Shown here: piece by piece, positions 14,308 through 60,723 of the stretch
How the letters are laid out: every line of letters begins with the position of its first letter
Numbering within the stretch: position 1 is the first letter of the stretch
Origin: a virus
Length of the DNA stretch: 64,000 nt
Virus record (IMG/VR): IMGVR_UViG_3300032397_000008
Coordinates: 19,040-83,039 of that record
Reading direction: 5' to 3' (one strand)
Position numbers and translations under genes: made by a program
Notes under the pieces: model-generated
The model's database searches: none
What the model saw: only the letters and a program-made list of their open reading frames with translations
Told to the model about the DNA's origin: nothing

Positions 14308-14309
14308 AT

Positions 14310-14509: not shown

Positions 14510-14510
14510 T

Positions 14511-14584: not shown

Positions 14585-14588
14585 TTTT

Positions 14589-14664: not shown

Positions 14665-14681
14665 TTTCAGTTCTCTGTACT

Positions 14682-15356: not shown

Positions 15357-15377
15357 GTGGCCGATAACGGTACTCAA

Positions 15378-15390
15378 ATTTTCCGTTCTT
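15378..15390 (+). promoter_or_regulatory. Motif A (TTTTCCGTTCTT) box
   Basis: The box is followed by CGGAGT and the ATG at 15397. GGAG may double as a Shine-Dalgarno. Confidence 0.5.
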
Positions 15391-15396
15391 CGGAGT

Positions 15397-16326
15397 ATGG
15401 TGTCCACCACGCTGCGCACAAAACTAACCCCTGTCCGGTATCCAGGTGGGAAGTCTAATGCACTTCCTTTTCTGAAGGAATACTTGCCGGTCGACTATGC
15501 TGAATGGAGGGAACCTTTCTTCGGTGGCGGTTCTGTGGGTCTCTTTCAAATGCAGCGTAACAAGACTGCCACCTATTGGATAAACGATTTGTTCTATCCC
15601 GTTTACTGCTTCTGGAATATCGTCTATCACAATCCCGAGGCAATGGTTGTTACCCTGTTGGAGGGCAAGCGAGCATTCCCGAACAAGGAAGAAGGAAGGG
15701 CATTGCATAAGGACATGCGTACACGTATCATCGAGTACATTAACGCTCAGGATGAACTTAGCACTGCCTGTGCTTGGTACGTACTGAACAAGACCTCTTA
15801 TTCCGGATTGGCGATGGCAGGATCATACGCTCCGCTCGCTTGGGATCAGAATTTTACCGAGAACTGTATTATTCGACTGCCTAGAATCAGTCTTCTAATG
15901 CATTCTGTGCGGTCGGTCAAGATTACGAATTTGGATTATACTGAGTTGTTGAGTAACACTGGAGAGAATGTGTTTGTGTTTTTAGACCCGCCCTACGCGA
16001 TTCGTCACAACCTTTACGGTGATGTCCAGGGTGCGATGCACCGAAATTTTAACCACGAAGAGTTCGCTTTGGCCATCCAAGCGTGTCAGCATCGGTGGAC
16101 TATCACCTACAACGCCAGCCAGGAGATCAAAGATAGATTTTCCAAGTACCAGCAGCGCGAGTGGCAGCTAACGTATACAATGAAAGCAGCGAAACGATTA
16201 GAAGGGGATAGAGCAAAAGTCAAAGGGGTGGGTGGTGCCAGGCAGAGTGATAAGACTGGTAAGTGCGGTAAAGAACTGCTTGTTTGGAACTGGGAAGGGG
16301 AAACTTACCCCGTAGTTAAAGCATGA
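15397..16326 (+). CDS. dam: DNA N6-adenine methyltransferase (D12 class)
   Basis: The protein transfers methyl groups from SAM to adenine N6. It begins with the D12-class N-terminal block PVRYPGGKSNALPFL, followed by EPFFGGGSVGLF (SAM binding) and YWINDLFYPVY. The catalytic DPPY appears as VFLDPPYAIR near residues 194-203. The 309-residue length fits Dam-family enzymes. It may protect phage DNA from host or its own nuclease; the neighbouring PD-(D/E)XK-like gene suggests the latter. It overlaps the next gene by 4 bases. The target site cannot be read from sequence. Confidence 0.9.
   Translation: MVSTTLRTKLTPVRYPGGKSNALPFLKEYLPVDYAEWREPFFGGGSVGLFQMQRNKTATYWINDLFYPVYCFWNIVYHNPEAMVVTLLEGKRAFPNKEEGRALHKDMRTRIIEYINAQDELSTACAWYVLNKTSYSGLAMAGSYAPLAWDQNFTENCIIRLPRISLLMHSVRSVKITNLDYTELLSNTGENVFVFLDPPYAIRHNLYGDVQGAMHRNFNHEEFALAIQACQHRWTITYNASQEIKDRFSKYQQREWQLTYTMKAAKRLEGDRAKVKGVGGARQSDKTGKCGKELLVWNWEGETYPVVKA
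16312..16322 (+). promoter_or_regulatory. Motif B (GTAGTTAAAGC) box
   Basis: This is the canonical form, joined directly to the ATG at 16323. The identical string precedes 26398 and 60724. Confidence 0.6.
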
Positions 16327-16604
16327 CCAGAGCGCAGACCGTTGTAAACATCTTGTTGGAAGACGATGCACCAACAATTCCAGTCCGTCAACAGGAACCC
16401 TATGAAGTCGTTAGGGTGTGTGCAATGTGCGAGCAAGAAAAGGGTAGAGCAGTGATAGGTCCTGGTCAAAAACCTTCTCATGGGTTGTGCCCTCGTCATT
16501 ATCAGGAGGCTGCAAAGGAGTACGGTATTTCGCCTGATCGAGTACAGAAAGTTCTTGATTTGGAAGCCAGTAAACCGCCTTTTTGGCATGACACGCCTAG
16601 ATGA
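16323..16604 (+). CDS. Small zinc-binding protein with capsid-targeting-like N-terminus
   Basis: The 93-residue product starts MTRAQTVVNILLEDDAP, an amphipathic helix ending in L-L-E, the same pattern as at 53848 and 60724. A zinc-like site follows: CAMC near residues 34-37 and HGLCPRH near 55-61. It overlaps dam by 4 bases but has its own motif B, so it could be transcribed late, apart from dam. I infer an internal head protein. Confidence 0.6.
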   Translation: MTRAQTVVNILLEDDAPTIPVRQQEPYEVVRVCAMCEQEKGRAVIGPGQKPSHGLCPRHYQEAAKEYGISPDRVQKVLDLEASKPPFWHDTPR

Positions 16605-16608
16605 TTTT

Positions 16609-16682
16609 GCGCCATTAGCATAAAAGTAATGTGCTAGTCTTCCAAACTAGCGAAGTCGGAGCATTACCGACATGGCGCTCCA
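16609..16682 (+). tRNA. tRNA-Gly(TCC)
   Basis: The acceptor GCGCCAT/ATGGCGC is perfect, discriminator T. CTAGT-CTTCCAA-ACTAG gives TCC. T-loop AGCATTA. Confidence 0.88.
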
Positions 16683-16687
16683 ATTTT

Positions 16688-16761
16688 GCCCTTGTAGTAC
16701 AAAAGCAGTATGCGTGCATGGTAAGCACGAGATGACGGGGCAGTACCGTCCTAGGGCTCCA
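16688..16761 (+). tRNA. tRNA-Thr(GGT)
   Basis: The acceptor GCCCTTG/CTAGGGC has one T-T mismatch; discriminator T. CGTGC-ATGGTAA-GCACG gives GGT. T-loop GGCAGTA. Confidence 0.84.
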
Positions 16762-16830
16762 TATTTTGTTCTTGACGACGTTTTCCAGGTGTGATTTACT
16801 GGGCACGTTCTTTGAGATTTTGTATGGAAT

Positions 16831-17267
16831 GGGGGCGTTACGGAATCGACTGACTGAACGAACCCGAATGCGACATGCCAAGGATGATCGTTGGCCTTGT
16901 AAAATCCCGATCAAAAGTCAAATGCTAAACACATATCTGACTCCCTGGTGAACGGTCTTAGGACCGCCTGGGCTCGAATCGTCGATCGTGCGGGTGCATT
17001 GATCGATGCAATTCGTAGCACTGCGGAACCGACCTTCGCCTCGATGGCGGCGTAAGCTACCACGTCCAACTCCCGATGTCTGCTGAGGAGAATGGGCGAA
17101 AACAGCAGGCAAAACAACAGCACTCGTAAGAGCTGATAATCTTCCGATAGGTGCCAGCAGATGCCAGGTGGCTAGGGTGAGCACCGAAGTAAACACCTGG
17201 AGAAGCATGTGTAAGCGTCGGTAAGTGCAGTTAGGACGCGAGGTTCGAATCCTCGCCGCCTCCACCA
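16831..17267 (+). ncRNA. ssrA: Transfer-messenger RNA (tmRNA)
   Basis: tmRNA rescues stalled ribosomes. The 5' end GGGGGCG pairs with 3' CGCCTCC-A-CCA. The 3' part GGACGCGAGGTTCGAATCCT has a canonical T-arm. The 5' part, with ATGCCAAGG...TTGGCCTTGTAAAA, follows the usual tmRNA pattern up to the resume region. The most likely resume codon is GCT at 16924, 93 bases from the 5' end. Read there, the tag frame runs 43 codons to a TAA at 17053-17055 and ends ...FASMAA, an AA end as in natural tags but unusually long. The -1-type alternative beginning at ATG 16922 gives the short MLNTYLTPW and stops. Length is about 437 nt. Confidence 0.93.
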
Positions 17268-17279
17268 CTTTTGGATACT

Positions 17280-17432
17280 TAAGCACGGTCAGGGGGCTGA
17301 AGGGTCGCACAGGATTCTTCAGCTTTATCGACTCGTCCTTATGCCTGCCCGTTCTGTGATCTTGGTGGGCAGTCTGGATGTGCCGTGCGTCGCAGTGATT
17401 CTCAGGTAGACGTGCTTGGGCCGCACTGCGAC
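17280..17432 (+). ncRNA. Structured RNA between tmRNA and tRNA-Met
   Basis: GCACGG (17283) pairs with CCGTGC (17383-17388), enclosing GCTGAAG/CTTCAGC and CTGCCC/GGGCAG hairpins. GTCGCAGTG (17389-17397) then pairs with CACTGCGAC (17424-17432). These four stems account for most of the 150 bases. No gene is visible. Confidence 0.45.
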
Positions 17433-17436
17433 ACCC

Positions 17437-17508
17437 GCCAGCAGGTCAAGTGACCGATGGTGTCTCATAAGCACTGTCAGGCAGGAGCGTTACCTGCTAC
17501 TGGCACCA
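17437..17508 (+). tRNA. tRNA-Met(CAT)
   Basis: The acceptor GCCAGCA/TACTGGC has one mismatch. The D-arm is compact. GGTGT-CTCATAA-GCACT gives CAT. T-arm GCAGG-AGCGTTA-CCTGC. Initiator, elongator and lysidine-type Ile cannot be told apart; elongator Met is the default. Confidence 0.75.
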
Positions 17509-17515
17509 ATTTCAT

Positions 17516-17590
17516 GGGCTGCAAGCTTTGCAAGCGAAGCATCTGGCTCTTACCCAGAAGAACCCGGAGCATTACCGGGGCGGCTCACCA
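17516..17590 (+). tRNA. tRNA-Lys(CTT)
   Basis: The acceptor GGGCTGC/GCGGCTC has two wobble pairs. TCTGG-CTCTTAC-CCAGA gives CTT. T-arm CCCGG-AGCATTA-CCGGG. Confidence 0.84.
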
Positions 17591-17592
17591 AT

Positions 17593-17696
17593 TTACCGTG
17601 TCTCTCGCCGAGCGGTGGCAGCGGACGTTGTGCCAAAGCCGAAGCAGCAGCGGGCGTACAAGGCTGCATCAGTGGTCTACGCTGCTGGCATGGTAA
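17593..17696 (+). ncRNA. ~100-nt structured RNA
   Basis: TTACCGTG at the 5' end pairs with CATGGTAA at the 3' end, and AGCAGCG with CGCTGCT inside. It occupies the gap between tRNA-Lys(CTT) and tRNA-Thr(TGT). No family is recognised. Confidence 0.4.
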
Positions 17697-17703
17697 TCCA
17701 TTT

Positions 17704-17775
17704 GCCGATACCTCCAGCGAGGGATCGAGTTCTGTAAACTTGGTCAGGTCGGGGCAGCACCGACTTTCGGCTCCA
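17704..17775 (+). tRNA. tRNA-Thr(TGT), C33
   Basis: The acceptor GCCGATA/TTTCGGC has one T-T mismatch; discriminator T. CGAGT-TCTGTAA-ACTTG gives TGT with C at 33. The D-loop is short. T-loop GGCAGCA. Confidence 0.75.
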
Positions 17776-17776
17776 C

Positions 17777-17850
17777 GGGCCGATAGGCTAGGAGCAAACT
17801 GCGTCTCTCACACAGACGATTCCCTGGTGCGATTCCAGGTCGGCCCACCA
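17777..17850 (+). tRNA. tRNA-Val(CAC)
   Basis: The acceptor GGGCCGA/TCGGCCC is perfect. CGTCT-CTCACAC-AGACG gives CAC. T-loop TGCGATT. One base separates it from the preceding CCA. Confidence 0.87.
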
Positions 17851-17851
17851 C

Positions 17852-18043
17852 TTACTCAGCAGGAGGGAGAGGGACCTTGCTTGTCCAGGGGTCTTCGACA
17901 ACCTTGATTTCAACAACGGACCCGCCAGTTGCTTGCTCGATTTTCGCTTCTAGTTCAGCGCAGAGGGAGTATTTGTCGGCGGGGGTGACTCGATCTGCCA
18001 TTCCAGCTTGCGGTGCGAACTCCAGTGTCAACCTGACCTTCAT
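17852..18043 (-). CDS. Small unknown protein (63 aa)
   Basis: The start ATG 18043 is chosen because AAGGAG lies seven bases upstream, one of the few clear Shine-Dalgarno sites in the window. The product MKVRLTLEFAPQ... is an alpha-beta type small protein with an acidic C-terminus. No family is recognised. It is the last of three co-directional minus-strand genes (18911 to 17852) and ends one base before tRNA-Val. Confidence 0.6.
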   Translation of the reverse strand: MKVRLTLEFAPQAGMADRVTPADKYSLCAELEAKIEQATGGSVVEIKVVEDPWTSKVPLPPAE

Positions 18044-18078
18044 GCTTACTCCTTGGGTGGCCTTGGGACTTTTGATTT

Positions 18079-18270
18079 TCAAGCGTTGAGAGCGGGGTGC
18101 TCTGGCAGCATGGACGCTAGTTTTTGGGCATCTTTCCCCTGAATTACCATGATGACGTTTACATCGTGCCCCGTAATCAATACCGTGCCATCAGCCAGCC
18201 GTGAGAATCCGAATGGGCGAGTTGCCGGGATGTTACCACCGTATTGTTTAGCTGCCTCTTTCCAGTTCAT
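18079..18270 (-). CDS. Small unknown protein (63 aa)
   Basis: AAGGAG seven bases before the ATG supports the start. The protein MNWKEAAKQYGGNIPATRPFGFSRLADGTVLITGHDVNVIMVIQG... looks like a small beta-rich domain. The same AAGGAGTAA leader precedes the next gene in the operon, so the two may have arisen with a duplicated intergenic region. No function is assigned. Confidence 0.6.
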   Translation of the reverse strand: MNWKEAAKQYGGNIPATRPFGFSRLADGTVLITGHDVNVIMVIQGKDAQKLASMLPEHPALNA

Positions 18271-18272
18271 AT

Positions 18273-18911
18273 TTACTCCTTGGGAGGTTTCGGAACTTTG
18301 CTCACCCAGGTAAGCTTTTCACTGCTACCTTTTGGTTTGCGGGTGGTTGGATAATACTTAGGATTTTCTTTGACGTGGTCACTTGCTATCTTGGATGCCT
18401 TTCTAGGGTCCTCAGTATGTTCCTTTTCAATCTTGGTTCCGATCGTCATCTGTTGTTTTTTGGATTCAACCCGACGATCCATTCGTAATTCTTTGCCGGG
18501 TGGCATGAATCCGGTAAGGTGACGGGTACGGCGGGCGCTGGGAGATAGTTCTGCGGAACCAGGGTTTATCGGTATTTCTTCCTCTTCGGGTTCGAGCGCT
18601 GGAAAAGTGCATTCAATTTCCGGTGGGGTTGGTGCTTCTGGCACTTCCGGTTCGCCCGGCAGCATGCCTTGGGTCCCGTCTCCAGCGAGTGAGTCACCCG
18701 TAGGAGGGCCGATCATGAGTCCATGGGTGCGGCTGGCTGCTACTTTGCGACTGATATTCCGCGGCGGGATCATCATTCCAACGGTGTCTCCGAATGAATT
18801 TCCAGTGCCGGTATCGGATGGCAGTCCCATTGCTTCGTCTATGCTTGGTTTCGGTACCATGCTTACAGCAATTTCACGAGGCGAGAAATCGTTAAAAGGA
18901 TAGTCATTCAT
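18273..18911 (-). CDS. Virion-associated candidate with DUF5661-like C-terminus
   Basis: The 212-residue product has a Pro/Glu-rich disordered middle. Its C-terminal segment KIEKEHTEDPRKASKIASDHVKENPKYY (quoted in parts: KIEKEHTEDPRKA, then KIASDHVKENPKYY) matches the EHT-D...A..IA.DHL.E.P.YY pattern of DUF5661, found in phage and bacterial proteins of unknown role. The start follows GTAGTTAAGGC directly, the motif seen before late genes, so a virion role is likely. Confidence 0.65.
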   Translation of the reverse strand: MNDYPFNDFSPREIAVSMVPKPSIDEAMGLPSDTGTGNSFGDTVGMMIPPRNISRKVAASRTHGLMIGPPTGDSLAGDGTQGMLPGEPEVPEAPTPPEIECTFPALEPEEEEIPINPGSAELSPSARRTRHLTGFMPPGKELRMDRRVESKKQQMTIGTKIEKEHTEDPRKASKIASDHVKENPKYYPTTRKPKGSSEKLTWVSKVPKPPKE

Positions 18912-18922
18912 GCCTTAACTAC
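18912..18922 (-). promoter_or_regulatory. Motif B (GTAGTTAAGGC) box
   Basis: On the minus strand, GTAGTTAAGGC joins directly to the ATG at 18911, 11-base spacing. Identical to the box before 51097. Confidence 0.6.
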
Positions 18923-18928
18923 TCTCTT

Positions 18929-19002
18929 GGGGTGCTAGTTTAACAGCAGAATGCTCGATTGACGTTCGAGCGATATCGGTGCGATTCCGGTGCGCCCTAC
19001 CA
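18929..19002 (+). tRNA. tRNA-Val(GAC)
   Basis: The acceptor GGGGTGC/GCGCCCT has two wobble pairs. CTCGA-TTGACGT-TCGAG gives GAC. T-arm ATCGG-TGCGATT-CCGGT. Confidence 0.84.
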
Positions 19003-19008
19003 TTTTTT

Positions 19009-19083
19009 GCCTCCGTAGTGAAACAGATATCACGCAAGTCTTCGAAACTTGAAGTGCTGGTGCGACTCCAGCCGGGGGTGCCA
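19009..19083 (+). tRNA. tRNA-Arg(TCG)
   Basis: The acceptor GCCTCCG/CGGGGGT has two wobble pairs; discriminator G. CAAGT-CTTCGAA-ACTTG gives TCG. T-arm GCTGG-TGCGACT-CCAGC. Confidence 0.86.
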
Positions 19084-19094
19084 TTTGTATACAT

Positions 19095-19178
19095 GCCAGC
19101 GTGGTTAACGGGGAAGAGCAGACCCATCTGAATTAGAATCAGACAGCCTTGAAGGTGCAATTCCTTTCGCTGGCACCA
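19095..19178 (+). tRNA. tRNA-Leu(TAG)
   Basis: The acceptor GCCAGCG/CGCTGGC is perfect. TCTGA-ATTAGAA-TCAGA gives TAG. Long D-arm, short variable loop. T-loop TGCAATT. Confidence 0.84.
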
Positions 19179-19190
19179 TTTTTCGTAGTC

Positions 19191-19198
19191 GTAGTTAA
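19191..19198 (+). promoter_or_regulatory. Motif B box upstream of tRNA-Leu
   Basis: GTAGTTAAGGCG stands ten bases before tRNA-Leu(TAA), with no reading frame to serve. It supports a promoter role for the box. Confidence 0.5.
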
Positions 19199-19207
19199 GG
19201 CGTGACC

Positions 19208-19291
19208 GCCCGTGTGGTCTAGGTGAGAAAAGCACATCGCACCGGCTTAAACCCGGCGACTTTGCAGGTGCAAGTCCTGTCACGGGCACCA
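19208..19291 (+). tRNA. tRNA-Leu(TAA)
   Basis: The acceptor GCCCGTG/CACGGGC is perfect. CCGG-CTTAAAC-CCGG gives TAA. Long D-arm, short variable loop. T-arm GCAGG-TGCAAGT-CCTGT. Confidence 0.85.
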
Positions 19292-19299
19292 ATTTTAAG

Positions 19300-19620
19300 A
19301 TGAATGCTGATCTGATAGTGGTTCTGTTGCTGGAAACTGATTTGGTCCATAAGACCACAGTGAAGTTCTGGAATCTCTATAACGCTTTGCCTGAGGAGAT
19401 TCAAGCCATAGCGAATAAGCAGTTTGCCCTGCTTAAGCAGAATCCTCTGCATCCGAGTCTGCATTTCAGAAAATTGCCTGACAGGGGGCTGTGGGAAGCT
19501 TACGTAACGAACCAAGGAGTGGCCTATAGGGCATTTGCAAGACCTTTAGGACAAGGCAGTTACGAATGGTTTTTTATTGGAACTCATCGGGAAGCTGAAA
19601 GATTTTTACGAAGTTTGTAA
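19300..19620 (+). CDS. RelE/HigB-like toxin
   Basis: The 106-residue product has the small RelE/ParE fold pattern: NALPEEIQAIANKQFALLKQNP (helical hairpin), LHFRKLPDRGLWEAYVTNQGVAYRAFAR (beta sheet with basic residues) and WFFIGTHREAERFL (C-terminal strand and helix). Toxins of this type are mRNA interferases or gyrase poisons. A small acidic gene follows 41 bases later, as in HigBA-type modules with toxin first. It starts eight b after tRNA-Leu(TAA). It could guard the tRNA region or exclude other phages; this is inference. Confidence 0.7.
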   Translation: MNADLIVVLLLETDLVHKTTVKFWNLYNALPEEIQAIANKQFALLKQNPLHPSLHFRKLPDRGLWEAYVTNQGVAYRAFARPLGQGSYEWFFIGTHREAERFLRSL

Positions 19621-19661
19621 TTTTTGTTGACAAGATCACCTTGGTGTGGCAAATTGATGAT

Positions 19662-19901
19662 ATGAAAACAGAGACAAAACTGCTGACCGAAGAAGATATC
19701 AAGGCGTTGAAAGCGATCAACGAGTCTCAATCCTCCTGGAAGGAGAAGTTTTTCAATGAGCTAGAAGAAATCGGCAAGCGGGAGGCAGCTCGTCGGCCAG
19801 GGGAGAAGATTTCAATGGCGGATGTGCAAGCGGAGTTTTCCCAGTACGATGACTCTGGACTGACTTTGGAAGAGGGGTTTGCCAGGTTGGCAAAAGTGTG
19901 A
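19662..19901 (+). CDS. Probable antitoxin of the 19300 toxin
   Basis: The ATG at 19662 begins MKTETKLLTEEDIKALKAI. The 79-residue product is mostly helical and acidic, with a basic stretch (KREAARRPGEK). No HTH is certain. Position directly downstream of the RelE-like toxin, size and charge make it the likely neutralising partner. It ends 16 bases before the next tRNA. Confidence 0.55.
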   Translation: MKTETKLLTEEDIKALKAINESQSSWKEKFFNELEEIGKREAARRPGEKISMADVQAEFSQYDDSGLTLEEGFARLAKV

Positions 19902-19917
19902 TTTTCCGTTGCCGAAT

Positions 19918-20006
19918 TGCGGGGACAGGCCGGAGGACGCCAATCCGGCTCATAACCGGAGCCTCGAAAGAGACTATGGGTGGTGCAACGCCATCCCCCG
20001 CAACCA
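19918..20006 (+). tRNA. tRNA(CAT) with long variable arm
   Basis: The acceptor TGCGGGG/CCCCGCA is perfect. TCCGG-CTCATAA-CCGGA gives CAT. Unusually for a CAT tRNA, the variable region is about 17 bases with a CTC-GAAA-GAG stem. T-arm GGTGG-TGCAACG-CCATC. Met, or Ile reading AUA via lysidine; the type II Ile(TAT) tRNA nearby makes Ile worth considering. Confidence 0.7.
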
Positions 20007-20016
20007 ATTTACAAAT

Positions 20017-20643
20017 ATGCCACTACGAGCACAAGAGTTGAAACAGTTCGCCGGTCCACTTTTTATTGAAACTGGGGCGTGGGACGGAGAGGGGGTTGTT
20101 GAAGCCTTGAATGCTGGATTTGAAAAAGTCATTTCCATCGAGGCTGGAGAAGGCAAGTATCAGCATTGTGTAAAACGTTTTCAAAACGACCCACGAGTAA
20201 TGATGGTTTATGGCACGTCGCAAGACCAGCTATGGCACGTGATTAAAGACATTACGATTCCGGTTGTGGTTTATCTTGACGCTCACTACTGTGGGGATAC
20301 CGGGTACGGTTCTTGTGCCCTCGGTTCCCCGGTTAGTGAGGAATTGGCAATTCTTGCGCGACACCCAATACGATGTCACACCATCTTGATCGACGACATA
20401 CGCTGTTTCAAGGATGGTGACTGGATGTTTGATGAGTTTTTGAAAGACGAGGCTGTCGAAGCTCTTGAAGCGAAGATTCGACAGATTAACCCCGATTACA
20501 CTATCAGTTATCTGGATGGCCGATTTCCTGACAAGTTCAATAATCCGACCGTGTTTCTTGAAGATGTGTTGATGGCGCAAGTTTTAGCTGACTGTGCCGG
20601 ACCGGAAGGTAAGGTGGCAAAGCTTGCTACGGCAGCCCGCTAA
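20017..20643 (+). CDS. Class I methyltransferase-like protein
   Basis: The start ATG 20017 (MPLRAQELKQF) is chosen because upstream codons lie in the tRNA. FIETGAWDGEGVVEAL is motif I, VISIEAGEGKYQHC motif II and VVYLDAHYCGD plus TILIDDIRCF the acidic post-motifs. It resembles sugar or FkbM-like methyltransferases. The last 40 bases overlap tRNA-Ser(GCT), as the 7620 methyltransferase overlaps tRNA-Pro, so processing of that tRNA would cut this message near its end. Confidence 0.7.
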   Translation: MPLRAQELKQFAGPLFIETGAWDGEGVVEALNAGFEKVISIEAGEGKYQHCVKRFQNDPRVMMVYGTSQDQLWHVIKDITIPVVVYLDAHYCGDTGYGSCALGSPVSEELAILARHPIRCHTILIDDIRCFKDGDWMFDEFLKDEAVEALEAKIRQINPDYTISYLDGRFPDKFNNPTVFLEDVLMAQVLADCAGPEGKVAKLATAAR

Positions 20644-20693
20644 GCTGATCGCACCCGCAAGGGTGTCTGGAGCGTTACCAGTGCCTTCCGCCA
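20604..20693 (+). tRNA. tRNA-Ser(GCT), C33
   Basis: Type II tRNA. The acceptor GGAAGGT/GCCTTCC is good, discriminator G. The CCGCTAA loop gives GCT with C at 33. The variable arm CACCC-GCAA-GGGTG is clear. T-arm TCTGG-AGCGTTA-CCAGT. Its 5' half lies in the methyltransferase gene. Confidence 0.8.
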
Positions 20694-20698
20694 ATTTT

Positions 20699-20792
20699 AG
20701 CCTCGTGATGTAACAGTGAACATGGCGGCCCTATAAGCCGTGAAGCCCTAGATTTGGGCGCTATCTCGGTGCAAATCCGGGCGAGGCTACCA
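20699..20792 (+). tRNA. tRNA-Ile(TAT), type II, C33
   Basis: The acceptor AGCCTCG/CGAGGCT is perfect. GCGGC-CCTATAA-GCCGT gives TAT with C at 33. It has a long variable arm GCCC-TAGATTT-GGGC, abnormal for Ile. T-arm CTCGG-TGCAAAT-CCGGG. Confidence 0.65.
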
Positions 20793-20797
20793 TTTTT

Positions 20798-20804
20798 GTT
20801 CTTA
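20798..20804 (+). promoter_or_regulatory. Motif A (GTTCTTA) box
   Basis: TTTTTGTTCTTAACCGT joins the ATG at 20810, directly after tRNA-Ile(TAT). Confidence 0.5.
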
Positions 20805-20809
20805 ACCGT

Positions 20810-21283
20810 ATGGATACGCACTACAAAATCATGGATATAGGCAGGCTGGACTTCTTGCGGGGTACAATGCCACAGGGTCTTGTAGTGACGAATGGGTGCT
20901 TCGATTGTCTTCATGCCGGGCACGTGGACTATCTGGAGAGGGCCAGGAGCCTCGGTAAAATGCTGATTGTCGGATTGAACGGCGACGATGCGGTTACTGT
21001 TCTAAAGGGAGCGGGCCGTCCGATTAACAAGGAGACGGACCGAGCCAGGGTTCTGGCAGCTCTTGAATGTGTTCACTTTGTAATTATTTTTCAGGACGTC
21101 AGGGCGACCGAGTTCATTCGAATCGCTAAGCCGGAGATTTATGTCAAGGGCGGGGACTATACATTGGAGACCCTTTACCCGCCTGAGCGAGAGGCCGTAG
21201 AGGCAGCGGGGGGTAGGATCGTCATTCTTCCGCTCTCTAAAGGGTACTCCACGACTGAAATGATCAAACGAATTGCCAGGTAG
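20810..21283 (+). CDS. HldE-type nucleotidyltransferase (heptose-phosphate adenylyltransferase domain)
   Basis: The 157-residue protein matches the cytidylyltransferase-like C-terminal domain of HldE/RfaE: TNGCFDCLHAGHVDYLERAR (HxGH nucleotide-binding motif), VGLNGDDAVTVLKG, GRPIN...DRARVLAALECV, YVKGGDY, and a C-terminal ISTTEMI-like block (GYSTTEMIKRI). This enzyme makes ADP-heptose from heptose-1-phosphate. A GT9 heptosyltransferase-like gene lies at 31484, so the phage may make or use an ADP-heptose-type sugar. The kinase half is absent here. The last ten bases overlap tRNA-Asn. Confidence 0.85.
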   Translation: MDTHYKIMDIGRLDFLRGTMPQGLVVTNGCFDCLHAGHVDYLERARSLGKMLIVGLNGDDAVTVLKGAGRPINKETDRARVLAALECVHFVIIFQDVRATEFIRIAKPEIYVKGGDYTLETLYPPEREAVEAAGGRIVILPLSKGYSTTEMIKRIAR

Positions 21284-21348
21284 CTCAATAGTAGAGCGAC
21301 ACGCTGTTAACGTGAGGGTTGTGGGTGCAAGTCCTACCCTGGCAGCCA
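21274..21348 (+). tRNA. tRNA-Asn(GTT), copy 2
   Basis: The acceptor TGCCAGG/CCTGGCA is perfect, discriminator G. D-stem GCTC/GAGC. CACG-CTGTTAA-CGTG gives GTT. T-loop TGCAAGT. It overlaps the end of the nucleotidyltransferase gene. Confidence 0.88.
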
Positions 21349-21349
21349 T

Positions 21350-21433
21350 GAGCATGTGGTTTACCCAGAATAGCAGATGGACCAGATCGAGAATCTGGAA
21401 GCCTTGGGAGTGCAAGTCTCCCCATGCTCACCA
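21350..21433 (+). tRNA. tRNA-Leu(GAG)
   Basis: The acceptor GAGCATG/CATGCTC is perfect. CCAGA-TCGAGAA-TCTGG gives GAG. The D-arm AGAATAGCAGA is shared with Leu(CAA). T-arm GGGAG-TGCAAGT-CTCCC. One base follows the previous CCA. Confidence 0.86.
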
Positions 21434-21442
21434 ATTTATTAA

Positions 21443-21521
21443 ACCGCTGAAGCCACAGTAGACGGGCAACCGACTTTTAATCGGTCTATTCGTGAGGCTG
21501 CAACTGCCTCCAGCGGTACCA
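21443..21521 (+). tRNA. tRNA-Lys(TTT)
   Basis: The acceptor ACCGCTG/CAGCGGT is perfect. ACCGA-CTTTTAA-TCGGT gives TTT. T-arm GAGGC-TGCAACT-GCCTC. Confidence 0.88.
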
Positions 21522-21528
21522 TTTTCAT

Positions 21529-21606
21529 AGCCACGTGGGAGAGTAGTCGAATCCAACCGCCTTTGAAGCGGTAAAGCCGTTGGTGCAAATCCAACCGTGG
21601 CCGCCA
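21529..21606 (+). tRNA. tRNA-Gln(TTG)
   Basis: The acceptor AGCCACG/CGTGGCC has an A-C first pair; discriminator G. ACCGC-CTTTGAA-GCGGT gives TTG. T-arm GTTGG-TGCAAAT-CCAAC. Last tRNA of the array. Confidence 0.84.
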
Positions 21607-36639: not shown

Positions 36640-37227
36640 ATGTCCTCATACACAATACAAAAAGCAAAGCCGGGGTGGAACTACAAACGAGTAGGAAAGA
36701 TCGTTTCGGGTGATCCCTCCCTTAAGCGTTTTATTGGCGAAAAAACTGTCTCTATCGAACGGCGTAACGGGACGACCGTCAATTATTCTCCCGAGCTGAT
36801 TCTACTCATGGAAGCCATGGCGCAGGCCGGCATTCCGCTTCAGACATGCCCTAAGACTACTGTTTTGCAGTTCGCTGCGAGGTTCTGGATTAAGGAATCC
36901 TTCAAGTCCGTATCCGTACCGGTGGTCGCCGCTCCCGCCCAGCCCTCGAAGCCCGCTCCGGCATCCTTAAAAGCGGCTATACCTCGGAAAGAAGAAGTTC
37001 AGAATAAAGTTTTGAAATCAGACGAGAAGCCAACTTTTTGCGCCGCCGTAGCGTTGGCAAATCTGTCCATGTCCATGCTTCAGCTGGCCGAGCATTATGA
37101 CACATCTCCGGGAGCGGATAAGCGCCGGGAGAAACTGAACGCTCTTGCCACTGAGTATGAGCATCTCACAACGAGTTACTTAGACGGATGCTGGGAAGCC
37201 GGCATACGACACAATGCCAAAGCTTAA
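36640..37227 (+). CDS. Unknown protein in recombination-transcription operon
   Basis: 195 residues. The N-terminal ~90 residues are ordered (ERRNGTTVNYSPELILLMEAMAQ in part), then a Pro/Ala/Lys linker, and a helical C-terminal ~65 residues (AVALANLSMSMLQLAEHYD). It overlaps the sigma-factor gene by 14 bases. The two-domain layout with a flexible linker suggests an adaptor, perhaps for DNA or RNA polymerase, but there is no homology evidence. Confidence 0.55.
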   Translation: MSSYTIQKAKPGWNYKRVGKIVSGDPSLKRFIGEKTVSIERRNGTTVNYSPELILLMEAMAQAGIPLQTCPKTTVLQFAARFWIKESFKSVSVPVVAAPAQPSKPAPASLKAAIPRKEEVQNKVLKSDEKPTFCAAVALANLSMSMLQLAEHYDTSPGADKRREKLNALATEYEHLTTSYLDGCWEAGIRHNAKA

Positions 37228-39325
37228 GGTACACGAGCCGATTTCAGGAGAACATATCTTTCCAGCATCTCAAATCACTCCATTGGCGGTAAAGTGGAAG
37301 GAATTGAACACTGCGGGTCGCCATGAGCAGGCGATGCTGATTCTGGAAGATATCGTAAAACTGTCAACTTCTATGTTTGAGCGCCTGGCTCAGCATGAGG
37401 ATTTCCATCATACGGTTGATCTCAGCATCCTGGTGTCGGCCGCTCAAGAGAAGGTGATCAAGTGGCTGCTCCGGTGGAATCCTAAGAAAGGAAGAATTTT
37501 TTCATGGTTTTCGCTTAGTGAGCGAACGCAAATCCTTCTTCCAGATGGTAATACACGACAGATCGGTGATCTAGTAAATGAACGGTATAGCGGTAAGGTG
37601 ATGTGTTGGAATTTTGAAAAGAAAGCATTTGAAGCCAAGCAAGTCACTGACTGGAGTAAAAAACCGTGCAAACGAAAAGATTGGCGTAAACTTATTGTAA
37701 CGCGACCCAGCGGATATTCTCGCTACATTTACATCACCAAAGACCACCGAGTTTGGACCCAAACAGGATGGGCGTGTGTAGATTGGCTCAATCCTAGAGA
37801 TCTCCTTAGTGTCGATAAACCGACTTTGACCAAAGACGGACAAGCAGCTTTGTTGGGTTTGTACTTGGGAGATGGTTCAGTTTTTAAGAATGATTTTCGA
37901 GTTACACACGGAAAAGATCAACGTTTCTACAATGAATGGTTACTGAAGAAATTTAGGGGTAATCTGTACGATTGTCACACTGTTGGGTGGAATAAGTTTA
38001 CCAAGACGACGATGGACCATTCTGGTGAAACTATCATGTATTTCCATGCCGCCGATATGTGGCCAGAATTTGAAAATTTGAGTCATCCTAAGAAGATTAC
38101 TCCGTGGATTTTGGATCGTCTTACACCACTAAGTTTAGCGATATGGTATATGGACGACGGCAGCTACGCAGAAAGTCAATTCGGTCAAGTGACGTTGGCG
38201 TCCCATGGATTTACTGAGCCGGAGCGTGGGCTTATTGTGAATGCTCTCAAGTGCCGATTTGGCATAACTGCTAATACGCACAAGGGTGGCTCCATATACG
38301 TCACCGAACAATCTAAGAATACGTTTTTTTCTCTTATTGCGCCGTATGTATTACAAGAATTCAGCTACAAGATAAAAGAGTCTTATCGACATGTTTCAAA
38401 GGTTGATTCCATGTTCGTTGAAGATCAAATAGAGCTAGTCAGTCACAAAGATATCGCCGTTTCAGGAGAAAGTTACTGGGAAGCAAAGAAGGTGTTTAAG
38501 CCGGTTTACAGGTCTGGCGAGACTACAAAAATGCTTCGATGGAAGTACGATTTGACCGTAGAAGGTAATCACAACTTTTTTGCGGGTCGATGTAAGTTGT
38601 TGGTATCCAACTCCAAATGTGCCAAGCACGCTTTTCTTTCTGAACTGGTCAAGGTCAACCAGTACCGAAAACGGTATCATGTTACCGGTGATAACCTGGA
38701 GAAATACTTCGGGGAGGTTGACCAGACTAGTGAGCGTCACAACCTGGCGGAGGAGTTTAATAACCGTCTGAAGACGCTTTATTGCTACTGGGGTAGCTTA
38801 CAGGAGCGAGGGGCGATTCGATATCTAGTGGAATGTGTCATAGACCTGGATAATCATGACCGGCAGGAGGCGATTCGCGGAGCTGCCTATGCTTACGGTA
38901 TCGGAATTGATTTGTCCAAATTTTTCTATAACTTCGTGCTGGTATCTTTGCGAGACCTGCATTACGATAAGATTCGTGTTTCGGTATCAGAGCACGACCT
39001 GCTGCGACTCCAGCAGGCGTATTCGACGTTTATGTTTTTGATGGAGGAGCTTCCTCCTGATAAGATCAAACGATTTATAGCGGTGTACGGCGGACAGAGA
39101 TTCAAGGTGCCAACCATACAGCAGGTGTACAAGCTAAAAGAAGATTTCAAAATCTTTCAAGAGATCGATCGAAGCAGTCAGGACCCGGATGCGATCAATG
39201 AAGCAGCTAAGAAGTTCAAGAAAACGCCACGCACGGCCTCGGAAATTTACCACGAGATGGCAGAAACACTTAACCCCGCCAGGAACGGGGAATTTGGAGT
39301 TTACAGCGACGACCCGTATGAATGA
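37214..39325 (+). CDS. gp55-like late sigma factor interrupted by an intein
   Basis: The exteins (residues 1-99 and 467-703) join as NPKKGRIFSWF-SKCAKHAFLSEL, the core-binding region 2 helix of phage gp55-like sigma factors. The C-extein continues with acidic and basic helices suited to contact with core polymerase and sliding clamp. The intein (100-466) begins with Ser and ends SN before Ser467. Such a factor would direct late transcription; the GTAGTTA boxes upstream of virion genes are its likely targets. The gene is followed by a second sigma-like gene overlapping its stop. Confidence 0.75.
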   Translation: MPKLKVHEPISGEHIFPASQITPLAVKWKELNTAGRHEQAMLILEDIVKLSTSMFERLAQHEDFHHTVDLSILVSAAQEKVIKWLLRWNPKKGRIFSWFSLSERTQILLPDGNTRQIGDLVNERYSGKVMCWNFEKKAFEAKQVTDWSKKPCKRKDWRKLIVTRPSGYSRYIYITKDHRVWTQTGWACVDWLNPRDLLSVDKPTLTKDGQAALLGLYLGDGSVFKNDFRVTHGKDQRFYNEWLLKKFRGNLYDCHTVGWNKFTKTTMDHSGETIMYFHAADMWPEFENLSHPKKITPWILDRLTPLSLAIWYMDDGSYAESQFGQVTLASHGFTEPERGLIVNALKCRFGITANTHKGGSIYVTEQSKNTFFSLIAPYVLQEFSYKIKESYRHVSKVDSMFVEDQIELVSHKDIAVSGESYWEAKKVFKPVYRSGETTKMLRWKYDLTVEGNHNFFAGRCKLLVSNSKCAKHAFLSELVKVNQYRKRYHVTGDNLEKYFGEVDQTSERHNLAEEFNNRLKTLYCYWGSLQERGAIRYLVECVIDLDNHDRQEAIRGAAYAYGIGIDLSKFFYNFVLVSLRDLHYDKIRVSVSEHDLLRLQQAYSTFMFLMEELPPDKIKRFIAVYGGQRFKVPTIQQVYKLKEDFKIFQEIDRSSQDPDAINEAAKKFKKTPRTASEIYHEMAETLNPARNGEFGVYSDDPYE
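37511..38611 (+). mobile_element. Intein with LAGLIDADG homing endonuclease in the sigma factor
   Basis: The splicing block starts SLSERTQILLPDG (Ser1 instead of the usual Cys) and TKDHRVWTQTGW is block B. Two LAGLIDADG motifs are seen: ALLGLYLGDGSV and SLAIWYMDDGSY. The C-terminal block is DLTVEGNHNFFAGRC...LLVSN with Asn466 and +1 Ser. The penultimate residue is Ser rather than His, which may slow splicing. Length 367 residues. Confidence 0.88.
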
Positions 39326-40802
39326 TGTAGAGATTATTATTGAAGTGCTTAGGAAAAGCAGCCGGAACGTGGAATGGATGGTAAGATCAAAATCTACTTT
39401 ACCTTGTCTTCCTCCACTAGAAGACATGATGCCCGATATAAATCGTTTGATCATGTCGATTGTGCGGACGTATGCCAACCCGGCCAATCCTCTTCTTCAC
39501 TTTGAGGATTTAGTGTCAGAATGTAAGGAGAAACTTGCTAAGCTGCTGTTTGATGGTCTGGAAAAACGGGCACCGACTCGTGAAAAGTTCTTCGCATTCA
39601 TCAAGGTGGCGTTCAAGCATCACATTTACAGTCATATCCAGAAGCACGTATTCGCCTTTAAGCGGACCGGCGTCAAGGCTCCGCCCAGGAATCAGCAAGT
39701 TCAGTCTCTCCGGGCGTGCGAAGAGCCGGTGCCGATAGAATCGGAGCATGCAGTTCGACTCTATCTGGACGATCCAGATGCCAACGTACAGGTCGGAGAA
39801 CCTTTTGATACTAACGTTATGTACGAGCGGGAACTGGTCGATGAATTAAAAGCAGTTTTGTGGCCGGTTGAAAGACTAGTTTTGGATCAATTACTCAGTC
39901 CCAACGCAGAAGCTATGGTACATTCTCAGATTGATGCTTATCGTGGCAAGAACTTGAGTCGTGTGAATTTCCGTGTGAACTATCGACACATGGCAGAGGG
40001 CCTCGGTATCACTATCGATCTCTTTCAGCAAGCCATGGTAGCCATCAAACAAAAATACAAGATGATTATGATACAAGAAGACAAACAAGAATCTCCGGAA
40101 CAGCAACAAATCAAATTGGCCGAACTTACCCTCTGCCGGGTGTTTTGTGTTCAGGTGCCACCTACCATTGACTCCGTTACCAAGCGTCGGCTGTTTACAC
40201 TGGTGGCCCGTGATCAGGCGGATAAAATTACCACCGAGATTGCCAATCTGTTGGTGCTCATCGGTGCCCAAGTACCGCACAAGTTGGGTGATCAACTTTC
40301 TTGTCACGGTGTTCTTTGGCAGCGTAATCATCGTATCTGCATGTCGTGTGGTGCTCAGGACAGCTGTAAGGTCAAAGCAGTGAATTTAGGGCTCGGGGAT
40401 ATGGTGCTGAGTCCTCGCCTACTGGGTGCAAAGCTCTCTCGGATACCGGTGATTCTGCCTAACCAGCCACCTGAGTCTGACGTGGAACCTGAAAGGGGAG
40501 TTCTGCCACAGAATAACCGTGACGAAGACGTGTTGTCCTACCTAAACGATAGCTTCAAGCCGGTCATGCACATGGGGGAGATTTATTACAAGTTTAACGA
40601 ACGCCTCGGTGATCGTGATCGGTTACTGTTTTGCGTGGGTGAGCCTGGGTCGGCGATGCGTCTTAGGTTCTGCAATCCTCATGAGTCGGTAAGAGAGTCT
40701 TTACGACTGGGTAATCGAAAGGGATGGTATGTTCCTGACAATTTGACTGCTCAGGAGGTAATCGAGGTTATCGACCAACACACAAAAGCGGTTCTTTTAT
40801 AG
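39318..40802 (+). CDS. Second sigma-like protein with zinc knuckle
   Basis: I use ATG 39318 (MNDVEIII), overlapping the sigma gene's stop by 8 bases. Residues about 40-130 (RLIMSIVRTYANPANPLLHFEDLVSECKEKLAKLL; quoted in part HFEDLVSECKEKLAKLL, FFAFIKVAFKHHIYSHIQKH) follow the sigma-70 region 2 pattern: D-L-V/x-E and F-x-F-x-K...I...I. Later there is CMSCGAQDSC, a possible zinc knuckle, and an alpha-beta C-terminal half. It may be a region-2-like initiation factor or a sigma-derived DNA-binding protein. It is adjacent and co-directional with the gp55-like gene. Confidence 0.5.
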   Translation: MNDVEIIIEVLRKSSRNVEWMVRSKSTLPCLPPLEDMMPDINRLIMSIVRTYANPANPLLHFEDLVSECKEKLAKLLFDGLEKRAPTREKFFAFIKVAFKHHIYSHIQKHVFAFKRTGVKAPPRNQQVQSLRACEEPVPIESEHAVRLYLDDPDANVQVGEPFDTNVMYERELVDELKAVLWPVERLVLDQLLSPNAEAMVHSQIDAYRGKNLSRVNFRVNYRHMAEGLGITIDLFQQAMVAIKQKYKMIMIQEDKQESPEQQQIKLAELTLCRVFCVQVPPTIDSVTKRRLFTLVARDQADKITTEIANLLVLIGAQVPHKLGDQLSCHGVLWQRNHRICMSCGAQDSCKVKAVNLGLGDMVLSPRLLGAKLSRIPVILPNQPPESDVEPERGVLPQNNRDEDVLSYLNDSFKPVMHMGEIYYKFNERLGDRDRLLFCVGEPGSAMRLRFCNPHESVRESLRLGNRKGWYVPDNLTAQEVIEVIDQHTKAVLL

Positions 40803-56504: not shown

Positions 56505-57635
56505 ATGCCACCGCAGCCCCAACCCCAGCGCGAGAGTTCTAAACGAACTAGTGGTCGTTTGACGGCGTTGCAGTCTACATACGTATTAGACACGCATGAC
56601 TTGCCTACTTGGCAGGGGCAGGCACTCTTTTTTCCTGCTATGCCGGATGTCATAGAATTGGCTCGCAAGACGGATTATGCAGTGGTGAATGCTCGCTATG
56701 CGCCGGATGGCATACACATCTATAAGAGCACTTTTCCCTTGGAAATTCCTATCACGTTTAAGTTAGCATCCAATGACATCGACTTTTGTCCCAAGGGCGT
56801 CTATTCTCTGCTTCAAATGGCAGCACTCTTACATGCCTTGGTGCTACCTTTGGGAACGCAAGATAAGAAAGTTACTGCGACCCAAATGGCATCTACCGTT
56901 GGAGAGCCCGCTCCGGCCATTGCTGGTCAGCCGAGCACTTCAAGCGCAAGTAATGCACAAGACCCGAACGTAAGCACTTCTTGCGAGCAAGATGATGCGC
57001 TTCGACCTCCGGTAACTTGTGCGCTAGAATTGATGTGGACCGAGGCAGAGGGTCCCGGTATCGTGTGCATCGGGTATGTCAAGGATGTGTCCGCGAAATT
57101 TTCAGGTCCATGGCTGAGGGGACCTCGTCAGTCTTTCAACCTTCCATCGTTTTGCGATTTTTCGTTTACGTTTGTTCATGCTCCTGGGTATGGTAATGAT
57201 TATACCAAAACGGGGCAGGGATTAGGTCAGCAGGTGCACGCTTACGCTCAGTACGTGGAGAAGCACTTCTATAGCACGTTTGGTCTGTCTAACAATGGGG
57301 CGGCCGGGTCAAAATACAGGGGACTTAGAGACGGACCGCCAAAAGGCACAAAGCCACCGAACGTGCCGCCCGTGACGGCTGCTCAGGAAGCAACCTTACC
57401 TTCAACTCTTGAAGCTAGAGTTAAGGCTGAAACAAATAAGAATGAGAATCTGATCACGCAGCGCGATCGGCAAGAAAATTGGGCAATATATTTAGGCGAA
57501 AGTGGCAATCCTATGAGTCAGGAGGCATACAGGCAGCTCGCTGAGCAGACTCGACAAATCAATACTCAAAATTATGTGCCTGTGACCACATCCCGTTGGA
57601 GCATGATAGGCGTGGTAGGTCGTGGACATTATTAA
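56505..57635 (+). CDS. Virion structural protein (tail/baseplate candidate)
   Basis: 376 residues. After a short basic arm, a beta-rich domain: ALFFPAMPDVIELARKTDYAVVNARYAPDGIHIYKSTFPLEIP (quoted in part). A long Gln/Ala/Thr-rich linker follows, then CALELMWTEAEGPGIVCIGYVKDV and LPSFCDFSFTFVHAPGYGND, resembling phage tail-tube or baseplate beta domains. Ends beside the convergent gp46 gene, overlapping its end by 4 bases. Motif B upstream and adjacency to the tape measure support a tail role. Confidence 0.6.
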   Translation: MPPQPQPQRESSKRTSGRLTALQSTYVLDTHDLPTWQGQALFFPAMPDVIELARKTDYAVVNARYAPDGIHIYKSTFPLEIPITFKLASNDIDFCPKGVYSLLQMAALLHALVLPLGTQDKKVTATQMASTVGEPAPAIAGQPSTSSASNAQDPNVSTSCEQDDALRPPVTCALELMWTEAEGPGIVCIGYVKDVSAKFSGPWLRGPRQSFNLPSFCDFSFTFVHAPGYGNDYTKTGQGLGQQVHAYAQYVEKHFYSTFGLSNNGAAGSKYRGLRDGPPKGTKPPNVPPVTAAQEATLPSTLEARVKAETNKNENLITQRDRQENWAIYLGESGNPMSQEAYRQLAEQTRQINTQNYVPVTTSRWSMIGVVGRGHY

Positions 57636-60600
57636 GCCCACTTGAACGTGGTGCCATCGTCTTCAGTCTTTTCAGCGATCAGGATGTAATCTGCAAAATT
57701 TGCTGTTTCCTGATGATGATCTACCACGAAGATTAAAATTCCTAGAGTGTGAGCAACCTGTTTCATGTAGGATAGGATGCTCTTGCGCACAGCGGGGTCT
57801 TGAGAGTTCAGTACTTCATCATACCATCGGTAACCGATTCGATTGGACACCTGACCGACCTCGGACAACGTCTCAGCGATGATCAGATTAGTGAGACCGC
57901 TCTCTCCCTTGGAATTACCGGCAATCTTCTTTGATCCTATCCGGTTGTTTACGTTGACCGTCAGTTCGGCTTTCGAATCCCCGCTGGCAAGCGCACGGGA
58001 CGTGGCGTAGGTGACTTCAATAGTGCCACCGGTCATAAGCAGGCTGATACGCCGGGCAATCTCATTCAGGGGATTTATCACTTCTCCTAGCACCATGTTG
58101 GGTATGCCAAACGGACCGAATCCACGATTCCAATAATCTACAATCTTCAGAACTTCCTGTGACTGAAATAGTTTCGTGGATGTTTCTTCTACACTGCCAG
58201 ATGCCTTTTTGTGTTCCTCCTGGCGTTCTTCGAACACTGTCTTGGCTCGCAATAAAGTAGAGTTGTCAGGACCTCGTTCTAATGCCGCCAGGGTTACCTG
58301 GAGGCTTCTGATGTTGTCTTTAATGCGGTTTAACTCTCGATCCGACTCCTCATATTGATTACTCAGCGTTGTGGTTTCCCGGGCACCTCCTAGGTTGCGG
58401 ATATCGGCGTCAATCTCTCGGACCGTGGTTTCATACTGTTGCACGGTGGTGCTCGCTACACGCAAATTTGCGGCGAAGGTGTCAAGCGCTTTCTGAGCTT
58501 CCACAATCGAAGTCTGTTGCCGTTCCAGTTCTTCCTGACCGTATGCCTTGTCCCACGCCTTGCCGCACGTTGGGCAATTCTTTGGGACTGACTTCATCTT
58601 GGCTAGAGCCTGTTCTTCCTGGCGAATTTTAGCTTGTGCCTCCGCCCGAGGAGCATGAAGTGTGTCACGCTTGGCACGGTGCTCCGTCAGCTCGCGCTCA
58701 ATTTTGTTGCGTTGCTTTTCCAGCTCATGGTGCTGGCGTGCCTTTTCATCTTCGATCTCTTTGAGTCGCTTACGAATATCAGCTAACGTTTTTACCAGCT
58801 CCTGCGCTCGTATGTCCAGACGGGACTGACTCGCCTTCGATTCTACAAGTTTGGTGTGGTTCCTGGCTACTTCTTCATCGAACGCACGTTGCGCTGTTTT
58901 CAGGGCATCTTGAGCTTGATTCTTGGCAACGATAACTGACTGTAAGCGGCGGCGGGCTTCTTCGATCATCGCTTGATCGGTTGCGAGGTCTCGCTTGGCA
59001 TTTTGTAGTGCTTTGGAAGACTTTTCGGCATAGAAAGTCCAAGGAGGCTGCTGGAGCGACCACATAAGAACGTCTACAGCGTCTTTTTCAGATAGTTTAC
59101 TGAACTTGAGGTTGTCACCGTCAATGAACACTGTCCACTGGGCCAATTCGGGTGTGACGTTGACTACCCTTGTTAGTTCCTCTCGTGTTTCGGTGAGATG
59201 TCCTCGCTCGATGGGTGTCTCTTGGCCGATGGTGTAGCGCAGTCCTTCACCAGTGCGGCTGAGTTCTTTGCACTTGAATCCCATTTCAACTCTTAGGGGT
59301 TGATCGTTGAGAGTCGTGCGTAAGTCAATGTAAGTGTTACCTTTGTCGTTGTGACTGTAATCGCCTAGCTTGCTAAATTTGCCTGTTACGCCAACCAAAG
59401 ACCGGCTAATTGCTTCTCCGAGGGACGTCTTGCCTGAGTTATGCGTTACCGTGAAATCATCCAGAAGGTACAAACCATCCCTGTCTAAAGTGAATCCGTA
59501 GAAGTCATTTTCGTCCAAGTGTTTAATCGAAAATCCAGTAACGTTGTGTTGTCTGTTACTGTTCGATTTATCCGCTTTTTTGCGTAGTAGGTGAGTTGGT
59601 ATGTCTTCTATACGTCCGAAAATAGACACGGTATAGCACCACGCACCATTACCTGTCTGGCATTTTTTGAATCTAGGTGCTGGTAGCCGAGCAGTGAACC
59701 CTAAACTACGAGCTAGAAAAGCAGTATCTGTAGCAATCGTTTTGCTGGTACTGTAGAAGTAAAAGCACTTATTAGCGTAATATCCATCAGAATCCAACAA
59801 TCCTGATAGTAAGTTCAAGCGGTCATTTCTTGACGCTGTTTTGTATTGAAACGGTATGTGTTTGTTGTTTATTAAGTTGTACTCTTTAAGAAGTCTCAAA
59901 ACTGTATTTTTCCCGGAATTTTCGAACCGGCCAGATCGCTTGTTTCTATTACGCCCAGCAGAACCTGCCGAAATGAAGATACTTTTGCAACGGGCTTGGT
60001 GCTTTTTTTGGCATCTGACAGATAGACCAAGTCGAGTGGCGTAGGATATCCATTCGTTTTCGACCTCTGCGTCAGCGGTTGTTATAGCTGAAGTTCTGCT
60101 ATGGCCGTCTCCCAGCCATAGTCCTAGTATCCTTGGTGGTATTTTTAGGTTGCCCAGATTGCTGAAGTCTACGGCGTCGCTGGTGTACAGTTTGCAACTA
60201 TCGCGCTTATGCCTACTCATGTTCAGAAAATCTTTAACCGAGACAGTGAAGTATCCTTTGGCGCATGGTTCGGTAGGCGCGTAGTTGCAGTGTTTTCTGC
60301 ATCTTACAGAATTTTTGTCTACAATGTACTGTCCTGGAGTAAGGTAAAGTGCCAAAATATGATCTTCGTTGATGATAAATTCATGGCCGTGTAATGGCAC
60401 TATTTTGAACATTTTGCCTCTCCCACGGCACAGCTTCATCACTTCTCTCGGAGCTGAATCTGGACCCATTAACTTGTCTCCAACCGTGATACTTTCTACG
60501 GGTGCAAGCCTACCATCGTGTAACAGAACCAGTTGTCCTTTGGCGTGGCACCCCACGGAGTCCATCTTGCCATTTGAGGCACGGTTTGATCCTGTAACCA

Positions 60601-60691: not shown

Positions 60692-60697
60692 TCTCCT

Positions 60698-60708
60698 GCA
60701 TAGAACGG
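60698..60708 (-). promoter_or_regulatory. Motif A (CCGTTCTATGC) box of gp46
   Basis: On the minus strand this ends six bases before the ATG at 60691. The divergent motif B of 60724 lies a few bases away, so the two genes have back-to-back promoters of different class. Confidence 0.5.
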
Positions 60709-60712
60709 ATTT

Positions 60713-60723
60713 GTAGTTAAAGC
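60713..60723 (+). promoter_or_regulatory. Motif B (GTAGTTAAAGC) box
   Basis: Canonical box joined to the ATG at 60724. Confidence 0.6.

What the first reader, a model, noticed from the sequence alone, without database searches (positions are those of the whole stretch)
37511..38611. Intein inside the phage sigma factor
A full LAGLIDADG intein interrupts the core-binding helix of the gp55-like protein, exactly at a conserved F-S junction. Its Ser1 and penultimate Ser are unusual. Splicing would have to happen before late transcription, so splicing might gate the switch.
Basis: partly seen in the sequence, partly recalled or inferred. Interest (0 to 1): 0.7.

Follow-up and report, generated by a model that had tools for sequence, protein, structure and literature searches.

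The report
Intein in a phage sigma factor
A self-splicing protein insert (intein), carrying its own DNA-cutting homing enzyme, sits inside the promoter-melting helix of a phage sigma factor; the insert is real and its site is new to us, but nothing supports the idea that it works as a switch, because 12 distinct relatives of the gene lack it.

Summary
The 703-aa ORF at 37214-39325 contains a complete 367-aa LAGLIDADG intein at exactly 37511-38611. Its Hint and endonuclease motifs are intact. Twelve distinct intein-free homologues read straight across the junction (…FSWF|SKCAK…), which fixes both edges. None of the homologues found carries an intein, and the site lies in the most conserved stretch of the protein. 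The host protein is a sigma factor by fold: the top 50 Foldseek hits are all sigma factors, the sigma-2 domain fits at 2.2 Å, and there is a weak match to the gp55 family. It is longer than T4 gp55, with a C-terminal Mor-like domain. The junction maps to region 2.3 (sigma70 Y430|A431), the promoter-melting helix, not the core-binding helix. Ser1 and penultimate Ser are each known elsewhere. Together with no upstream histidine (the 'motif NX' His expected of Ser1/Ser+1 inteins), in a neighbourhood of Cys1 inteins, they make an uncommon active site. Splicing was not tested. Most likely this is a selfish class 1 intein that must splice for the sigma factor to work. Regulatory gating is untested and not conserved. 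Known kind, new host gene and site.

The parts
37214..39325 (+). Sigma-factor gene with intein, precursor of 703 aa
37214..37510 (+). N-extein, 99 aa, ends ..KKGRIFSWF; most of sigma region 2
   Evidence: homologues continuous across the junction; fold match
37511..38611 (+). Intein, 367 aa (Ser1 ... Asn367)
37511..37549 (+). Splicing block A, SLSERTQILLPDG, Ser1 nucleophile
   Evidence: alignment with 10 viral inteins
37736..37747 (+). Splicing block B, T76-K-D-H79
   Evidence: T76 and H79 invariant in A4
37850..37876 (+). LAGLIDADG motif 1, LLGLYLGDG (acidic D121)
38135..38161 (+). LAGLIDADG motif 2, LAIWYMDDG (D215/D216)
   Evidence: invariant AIWYMDDG block
38543..38584 (+). Splicing block F, WKYDLTVEGNHNFF with D347 and H354
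38591..38614 (+). Splicing block G, CKLLVSN|S: penultimate Ser366, Asn367, +1 Ser of the C-extein
38612..39325 (+). C-extein, 237 aa plus stop, begins SKCAKHAF; rest of region 2.3/2.4 and the C-terminal part
39026..39268 (+). C-terminal part matching Mor / late transcriptional activator profile (phrog_836)

Best explanation
A phage sigma factor gene has been invaded by a mobile class 1 LAGLIDADG intein. The endonuclease (inferred to be active, since both acidic motifs are intact) would cut intein-free alleles at the most conserved codons of the gene and copy the intein in. The translated precursor would be non-functional because the helix of sigma region 2.3 is split. Autocatalytic splicing through Ser1, Ser+1 and Asn367 would remove the insert without scar and rejoin FSWF-SKCAK. 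Shown here: intact anatomy, exact empty sites in relatives, a sigma fold, and the position in region 2.3. Inferred: splicing, homing, and loss of function of the precursor. Regulatory gating is not needed to explain anything seen.
For: Intein and endonuclease profiles; intein-with-endonuclease and I-SceI folds; splicing residues T76, H79, D347, H354, N367 and both LAGLIDADG acidic motifs kept; single open frame. Twelve distinct intein-free homologues, with F-S-C-A-K at the junction nearly invariant. Junction in the top-conserved 20-residue windows (rank 6 of 316). Intein G+C 0.43 against 0.48 for the exteins and third-position G+C 0.42 against 0.53-0.56, as expected of an acquired element. Two more inteins in the same genome, in DNA polymerase and SbcC-like genes. 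Sigma assignment: Foldseek top 50 all sigma factors; sigma-2 domain rmsd 2.2 Å over 101 residues; phrog_234 late sigma factor in 5 of 8 relatives, best 1.8e-4.
Against: No splicing or cleavage experiment. Ser1 without any histidine before H79, and no penultimate His, could mean slow or failed splicing. The nearest inteins are only 21-32% identical. The extein model is of low confidence overall (pLDDT 63.5, pTM 0.34), and the sequence match to gp55 is weak (E 0.004). One contig only; read-level support was not seen.
Confidence: 0.86

Rival explanations
1. Conditional splicing gate: the slow or condition-dependent Ser1/Ser-Asn active site delays release of active sigma factor, so that splicing times the phage's late transcription.
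For: The insert splits the region 2.3 melting helix, so the precursor should be inactive. The active site is unusual: Ser1, penultimate Ser, no His before H79, while the 10 aligned viral relatives are Cys1. A mycobacteriophage study found that the penultimate residue tunes precursor accumulation (PMC5050341).
Against: No homologue found carries the intein, so the lineage does not need such a gate. No evidence on rate or trigger. That the sigma factor is late rests on family likeness only; T4-type TATAAATA is not enriched (1 seen, 0.77 expected).
Confidence: 0.07
2. Decaying intein: the C1S and penultimate H-to-S changes have crippled splicing, so this phage carries a damaged sigma gene and relies on another factor or on low residual splicing.
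For: C1S mutants of several Cys1 inteins are reported inactive (PMC10189870); the motif NX histidine is absent.
Against: All other catalytic positions, both endonuclease motifs and the whole 703-aa frame are intact; the extein keeps its conserved residues. Natural Ser1 inteins splice, and penultimate Ser occurs in related viral inteins L163 and L164.
Confidence: 0.07

Closest known systems
Class 1 LAGLIDADG phage inteins (Pseudaeromonas phage KLEP7 RNA ligase; T5-like DNA polymerase; UvsX of Yersinia phage fHe-Yen9-02)
   Same: Block A/B/F/G layout, central LAGLIDADG endonuclease of the same family, about 350-370 aa
   Different: Those are Cys1 with penultimate His, in ligases, polymerases or recombinases; identity only 21-32%
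Archaeal TFIIB inteins (Mja; Mvu mini-intein, PDB 5o9i)
   Same: Intein in a transcription initiation factor; Mja TFIIB cited as a Ser1/Ser+1(Thr+1) intein; profile and fold matches
   Different: Archaeal host and an unrelated host protein; the solved one is a mini-intein
Ser1/Ser+1 'cysteine-less' inteins (PolB16 OarG, Psp Pol-1, PI-TkoII)
   Same: Oxyester chemistry expected: Ser1 and Ser+1
   Different: They carry a motif NX histidine before block B; here there is no His before H79, and the penultimate residue is Ser
T4 gp55 late sigma factor (phrog_234)
   Same: Collinear sigma region 2 match over about 100 residues; PHROG match in 5 of 8 relatives
   Different: Spliced product is 336 aa against 185 aa, with an added C-terminal Mor-like part; the match is weak

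Membership tests
Class 1 intein | Cys or Ser at position 1, Asn at the C-terminus, Cys/Ser/Thr at +1 | tested here: met
   S1, N367, S+1
Class 1 intein | Block B TxxH and block F Asp/His | tested here: met
   T76, H79, D347, H354
Class 1 intein | Penultimate His (common, not obligatory, so not a defining feature) | tested here: not met
   Ser366; Ser here is known in class 2 and phage inteins
Class 1 intein | Hint fold | tested here: met
   Foldseek to Mtu RecA, TliVMA and Ssp DnaB inteins
Class 1 intein | Self-splicing | not testable with these tools
   needs expression
LAGLIDADG homing endonuclease | Two LAGLIDADG motifs with acidic residues | tested here: met
   LLGLYLGDG and LAIWYMDDG; LAGLIDADG_2 1.6e-17; I-SceI fold
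LAGLIDADG homing endonuclease | Cleavage of the intein-free site | not testable with these tools
   needs biochemistry
Ser1/Ser+1 intein subgroup | Motif NX histidine upstream of block B His | tested here: not met
   No His in residues 1-78; motif described in PMC10189870 as highly but not completely conserved
Sigma-70 superfamily | Sigma region 2 fold | tested here: met
   Top 50 Foldseek hits are sigma factors; 6pss_L Z 10.2, rmsd 2.2 Å, 101 residues; Sigma70_r2 weak in 2 of 8
Sigma-70 superfamily | Binding of RNA polymerase core | not testable with these tools
   needs biochemistry
T4 gp55 | Match to the gp55 / late sigma profile | tested here: met
   phrog_234 in 5 of 8 relatives, best 1.8e-4; weak in our own HMM; the interrupted window protein itself shows no such match
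T4 gp55 | Short, about 185 aa, without a C-terminal DNA-binding domain | tested here: not met
   336 aa spliced; phrog_836 match at the C-terminus in 7 of 8
T4 gp55 | TATAAATA late promoters in the genome | tested here: inconclusive
   1 match, 0.77 expected; promoter specificity may differ

The most novel reading that the evidence does not exclude
A Ser1/Ser-Asn/Ser+1 intein without the motif NX histidine uses an altered activation chemistry, and its rate or trigger controls when the phage's sigma factor becomes active, so that protein splicing times the late transcription switch.
Probability: 0.06. Interest if true: 0.8.

Novelty: new member of a known kind. Interest (0 to 1): 0.42.

Why it matters
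Phage inteins are reported mostly in replication, recombination, ligase, nucleotide and packaging genes. The papers searched here report none in a sigma factor. Insertion in region 2.3 gives a natural case in which splicing is required before a transcription factor can open promoters. The Ser1/Ser+1 active site without the motif NX histidine is a test case for how serine inteins activate Ser1. The sigma family itself (a gp55-like region 2 with a Mor-like C-terminus, in phages with contigs up to 238 kb) had no annotated relative in the collections searched.

Tried and rejected
Single-protein searches of viral contigs and phages with the spliced sequence found nothing; relatives came only through the major capsid protein. 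hhalign of the extein family to gp55 or RpoD gave no meaningful alignment because the profiles are shallow. No cellular homologue in genome contigs, so the host stays unknown. T4 late promoter motif not enriched. Co-conversion around the insertion: flank identity is high to all relatives because this is the most conserved part, so no tract could be claimed. Tested whether the neighbour gene at 39189-40802 is a second sigma factor: no profile support. PDB sequence search with the extein profile gave only chance hits. Literature search for inteins in sigma factors found none in the held library, which is not proof of absence.

Full report
What is there. Window 37214-39325 (+) is one open frame of 703 codons. 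Residues 100-466 (nt 37511-38611) form a 367-aa intein. Profiles find LAGLIDADG_2 (1.6e-17), Intein_splicing (1.1e-6, below Pfam's own cut-off) and the NCBIfam N- and C-terminal intein regions. A profile of the intein with ten viral relatives finds I-SceI-type endonucleases (best 1e-28) and many solved inteins, among them the TFIIB inteins. An AlphaFold2 model (mean pLDDT 75.5; about 82-95 at the two splicing ends) matches intein-plus-endonuclease structures such as TliVMA (5e-12) and PI-PfuI (8e-10). This is far beyond chance.

The edges are exact. No relative was found by direct search, but an alignment of major capsid proteins recovered a group of related phages, with contigs up to 238 kb. 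Most of them carry the sigma gene in the same order: uvsX, one or two small genes, sigma, several further genes, prohead protease, capsid. Twelve distinct homologues (13 sequences, of which L041 is an end-truncated copy of L104) run straight across the junction, …FSWF|SKCAK…; a second scan returned only intein-free loci. So the intein is absent from every homologue found. The junction lies among the most conserved 20-residue windows of the protein (rank 6 of 316). Intein G+C (0.43) and third-position G+C (0.42) are below those of the exteins (0.48; 0.53-0.56).

What the host protein is. Pfam and PHROGs do not name the window protein a sigma factor. The family does better: phrog_234 (late sigma factor, the gp55 family) matches 5 of 8 relatives, best 1.8e-4; phrog_836 (late transcriptional activator, Mor-like) matches the C-terminus of 7 of 8; Sigma70_r2 is weak in 2 of 8. 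A gp55 profile built here matches L104 at E 0.004, above 1000 shuffled sequences (best 0.9), collinear over 100 residues. The AlphaFold2 model of the intein-free L020 protein is confident at about residues 20-110 only, but the top 50 Foldseek hits in the PDB are all sigma factors, and residues 13-116 superpose on sigma70 106-448 at 2.2 Å over 101 residues. Z about 10 is modest for a helical bundle; the uniform identity of the hits and the PHROG match carry the case. It is a sigma factor related to gp55 but larger (336 aa after splicing against 185), so 'gp55' is a likeness, not a strict membership.

Where the insert falls. Counting back along one helix from model 116 = sigma70 448 puts F98|S99 at Y430|A431. 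The sequences agree independently: KKGRLFSWF|SKCAK against RRGYKFSTY|ATWWI. In gp55 the same point is I|T of …HAYI|TQACFNAF. A precursor with this helix split should not open promoters (inference).

The active site. T76, H79, D347, H354 and N367 are kept, as are both LAGLIDADG acidic motifs. Position 1 is Ser, the penultimate residue is Ser and +1 is Ser. All ten aligned viral relatives are Cys1; so, by inspection, are the two other inteins of this genome, in DNA polymerase and SbcC-like genes. Ser1 is known in Pol and TFIIB inteins (PMC10189870). Penultimate Ser is known in class 2 inteins (PMC4031507), in mycobacteriophage inteins (PMC5050341), and in relatives L163 and L164. Uncommon is the lack of any His before H79: Ser1/Ser+1 inteins have a highly, though not completely, conserved motif NX histidine there (PMC10189870). 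H354 of block F may stand in for the penultimate His, as discussed in PMC5050341.

Mechanism and verdict. Best supported: a mobile class 1 intein that has invaded a conserved codon stretch and must splice for the sigma factor to work. Splicing and homing are inferred from intact anatomy, not shown. The gate idea has no positive evidence: no homologue found has the insert, T4-type late promoters are not enriched, and no rate is known. A decaying intein cannot be excluded. The kind is known; host gene and site appear new within the literature searched.

Noticed in passing
window 59438-60550 (-): Second intein, 371 aa, Cys1 ... His-Asn, inserted in the Walker A motif (VG|SGKTS) of an SbcC-like gene (ORF 57632-60814 -).
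   Followed up: partly
G000:C1:16142-16369 (locus L001), outside the window: Third intein, apparently Cys1 ... THN, in what looks like a family A DNA polymerase gene of the same genome.
   Followed up: partly
window 39189-40802 (+): Conserved neighbour gene of the sigma factor (A6), with a CxxCG...C cluster and a stretch resembling sigma region 2 to the eye; no profile match in Pfam or PHROGs.
   Followed up: partly
L015:8205, L017:8242, L020:8152, L045:8215, L095:10859: Motif TTTTCAATCGNCTTAGNTGC; in L015, L017 and L020 it lies shortly upstream of the prohead protease ORF, a possible late promoter; not found at that place in the window.
   Followed up: partly
window 4869-21606 (+): 23 tRNA genes by ARAGORN, all on the + strand, spread over 17 kb.
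   Followed up: no
L162:1501-2589: Ligase-type viral intein interrupted by one in-frame stop (..TDGSKM*IGKIV..): recoding or a frame defect.
   Followed up: no
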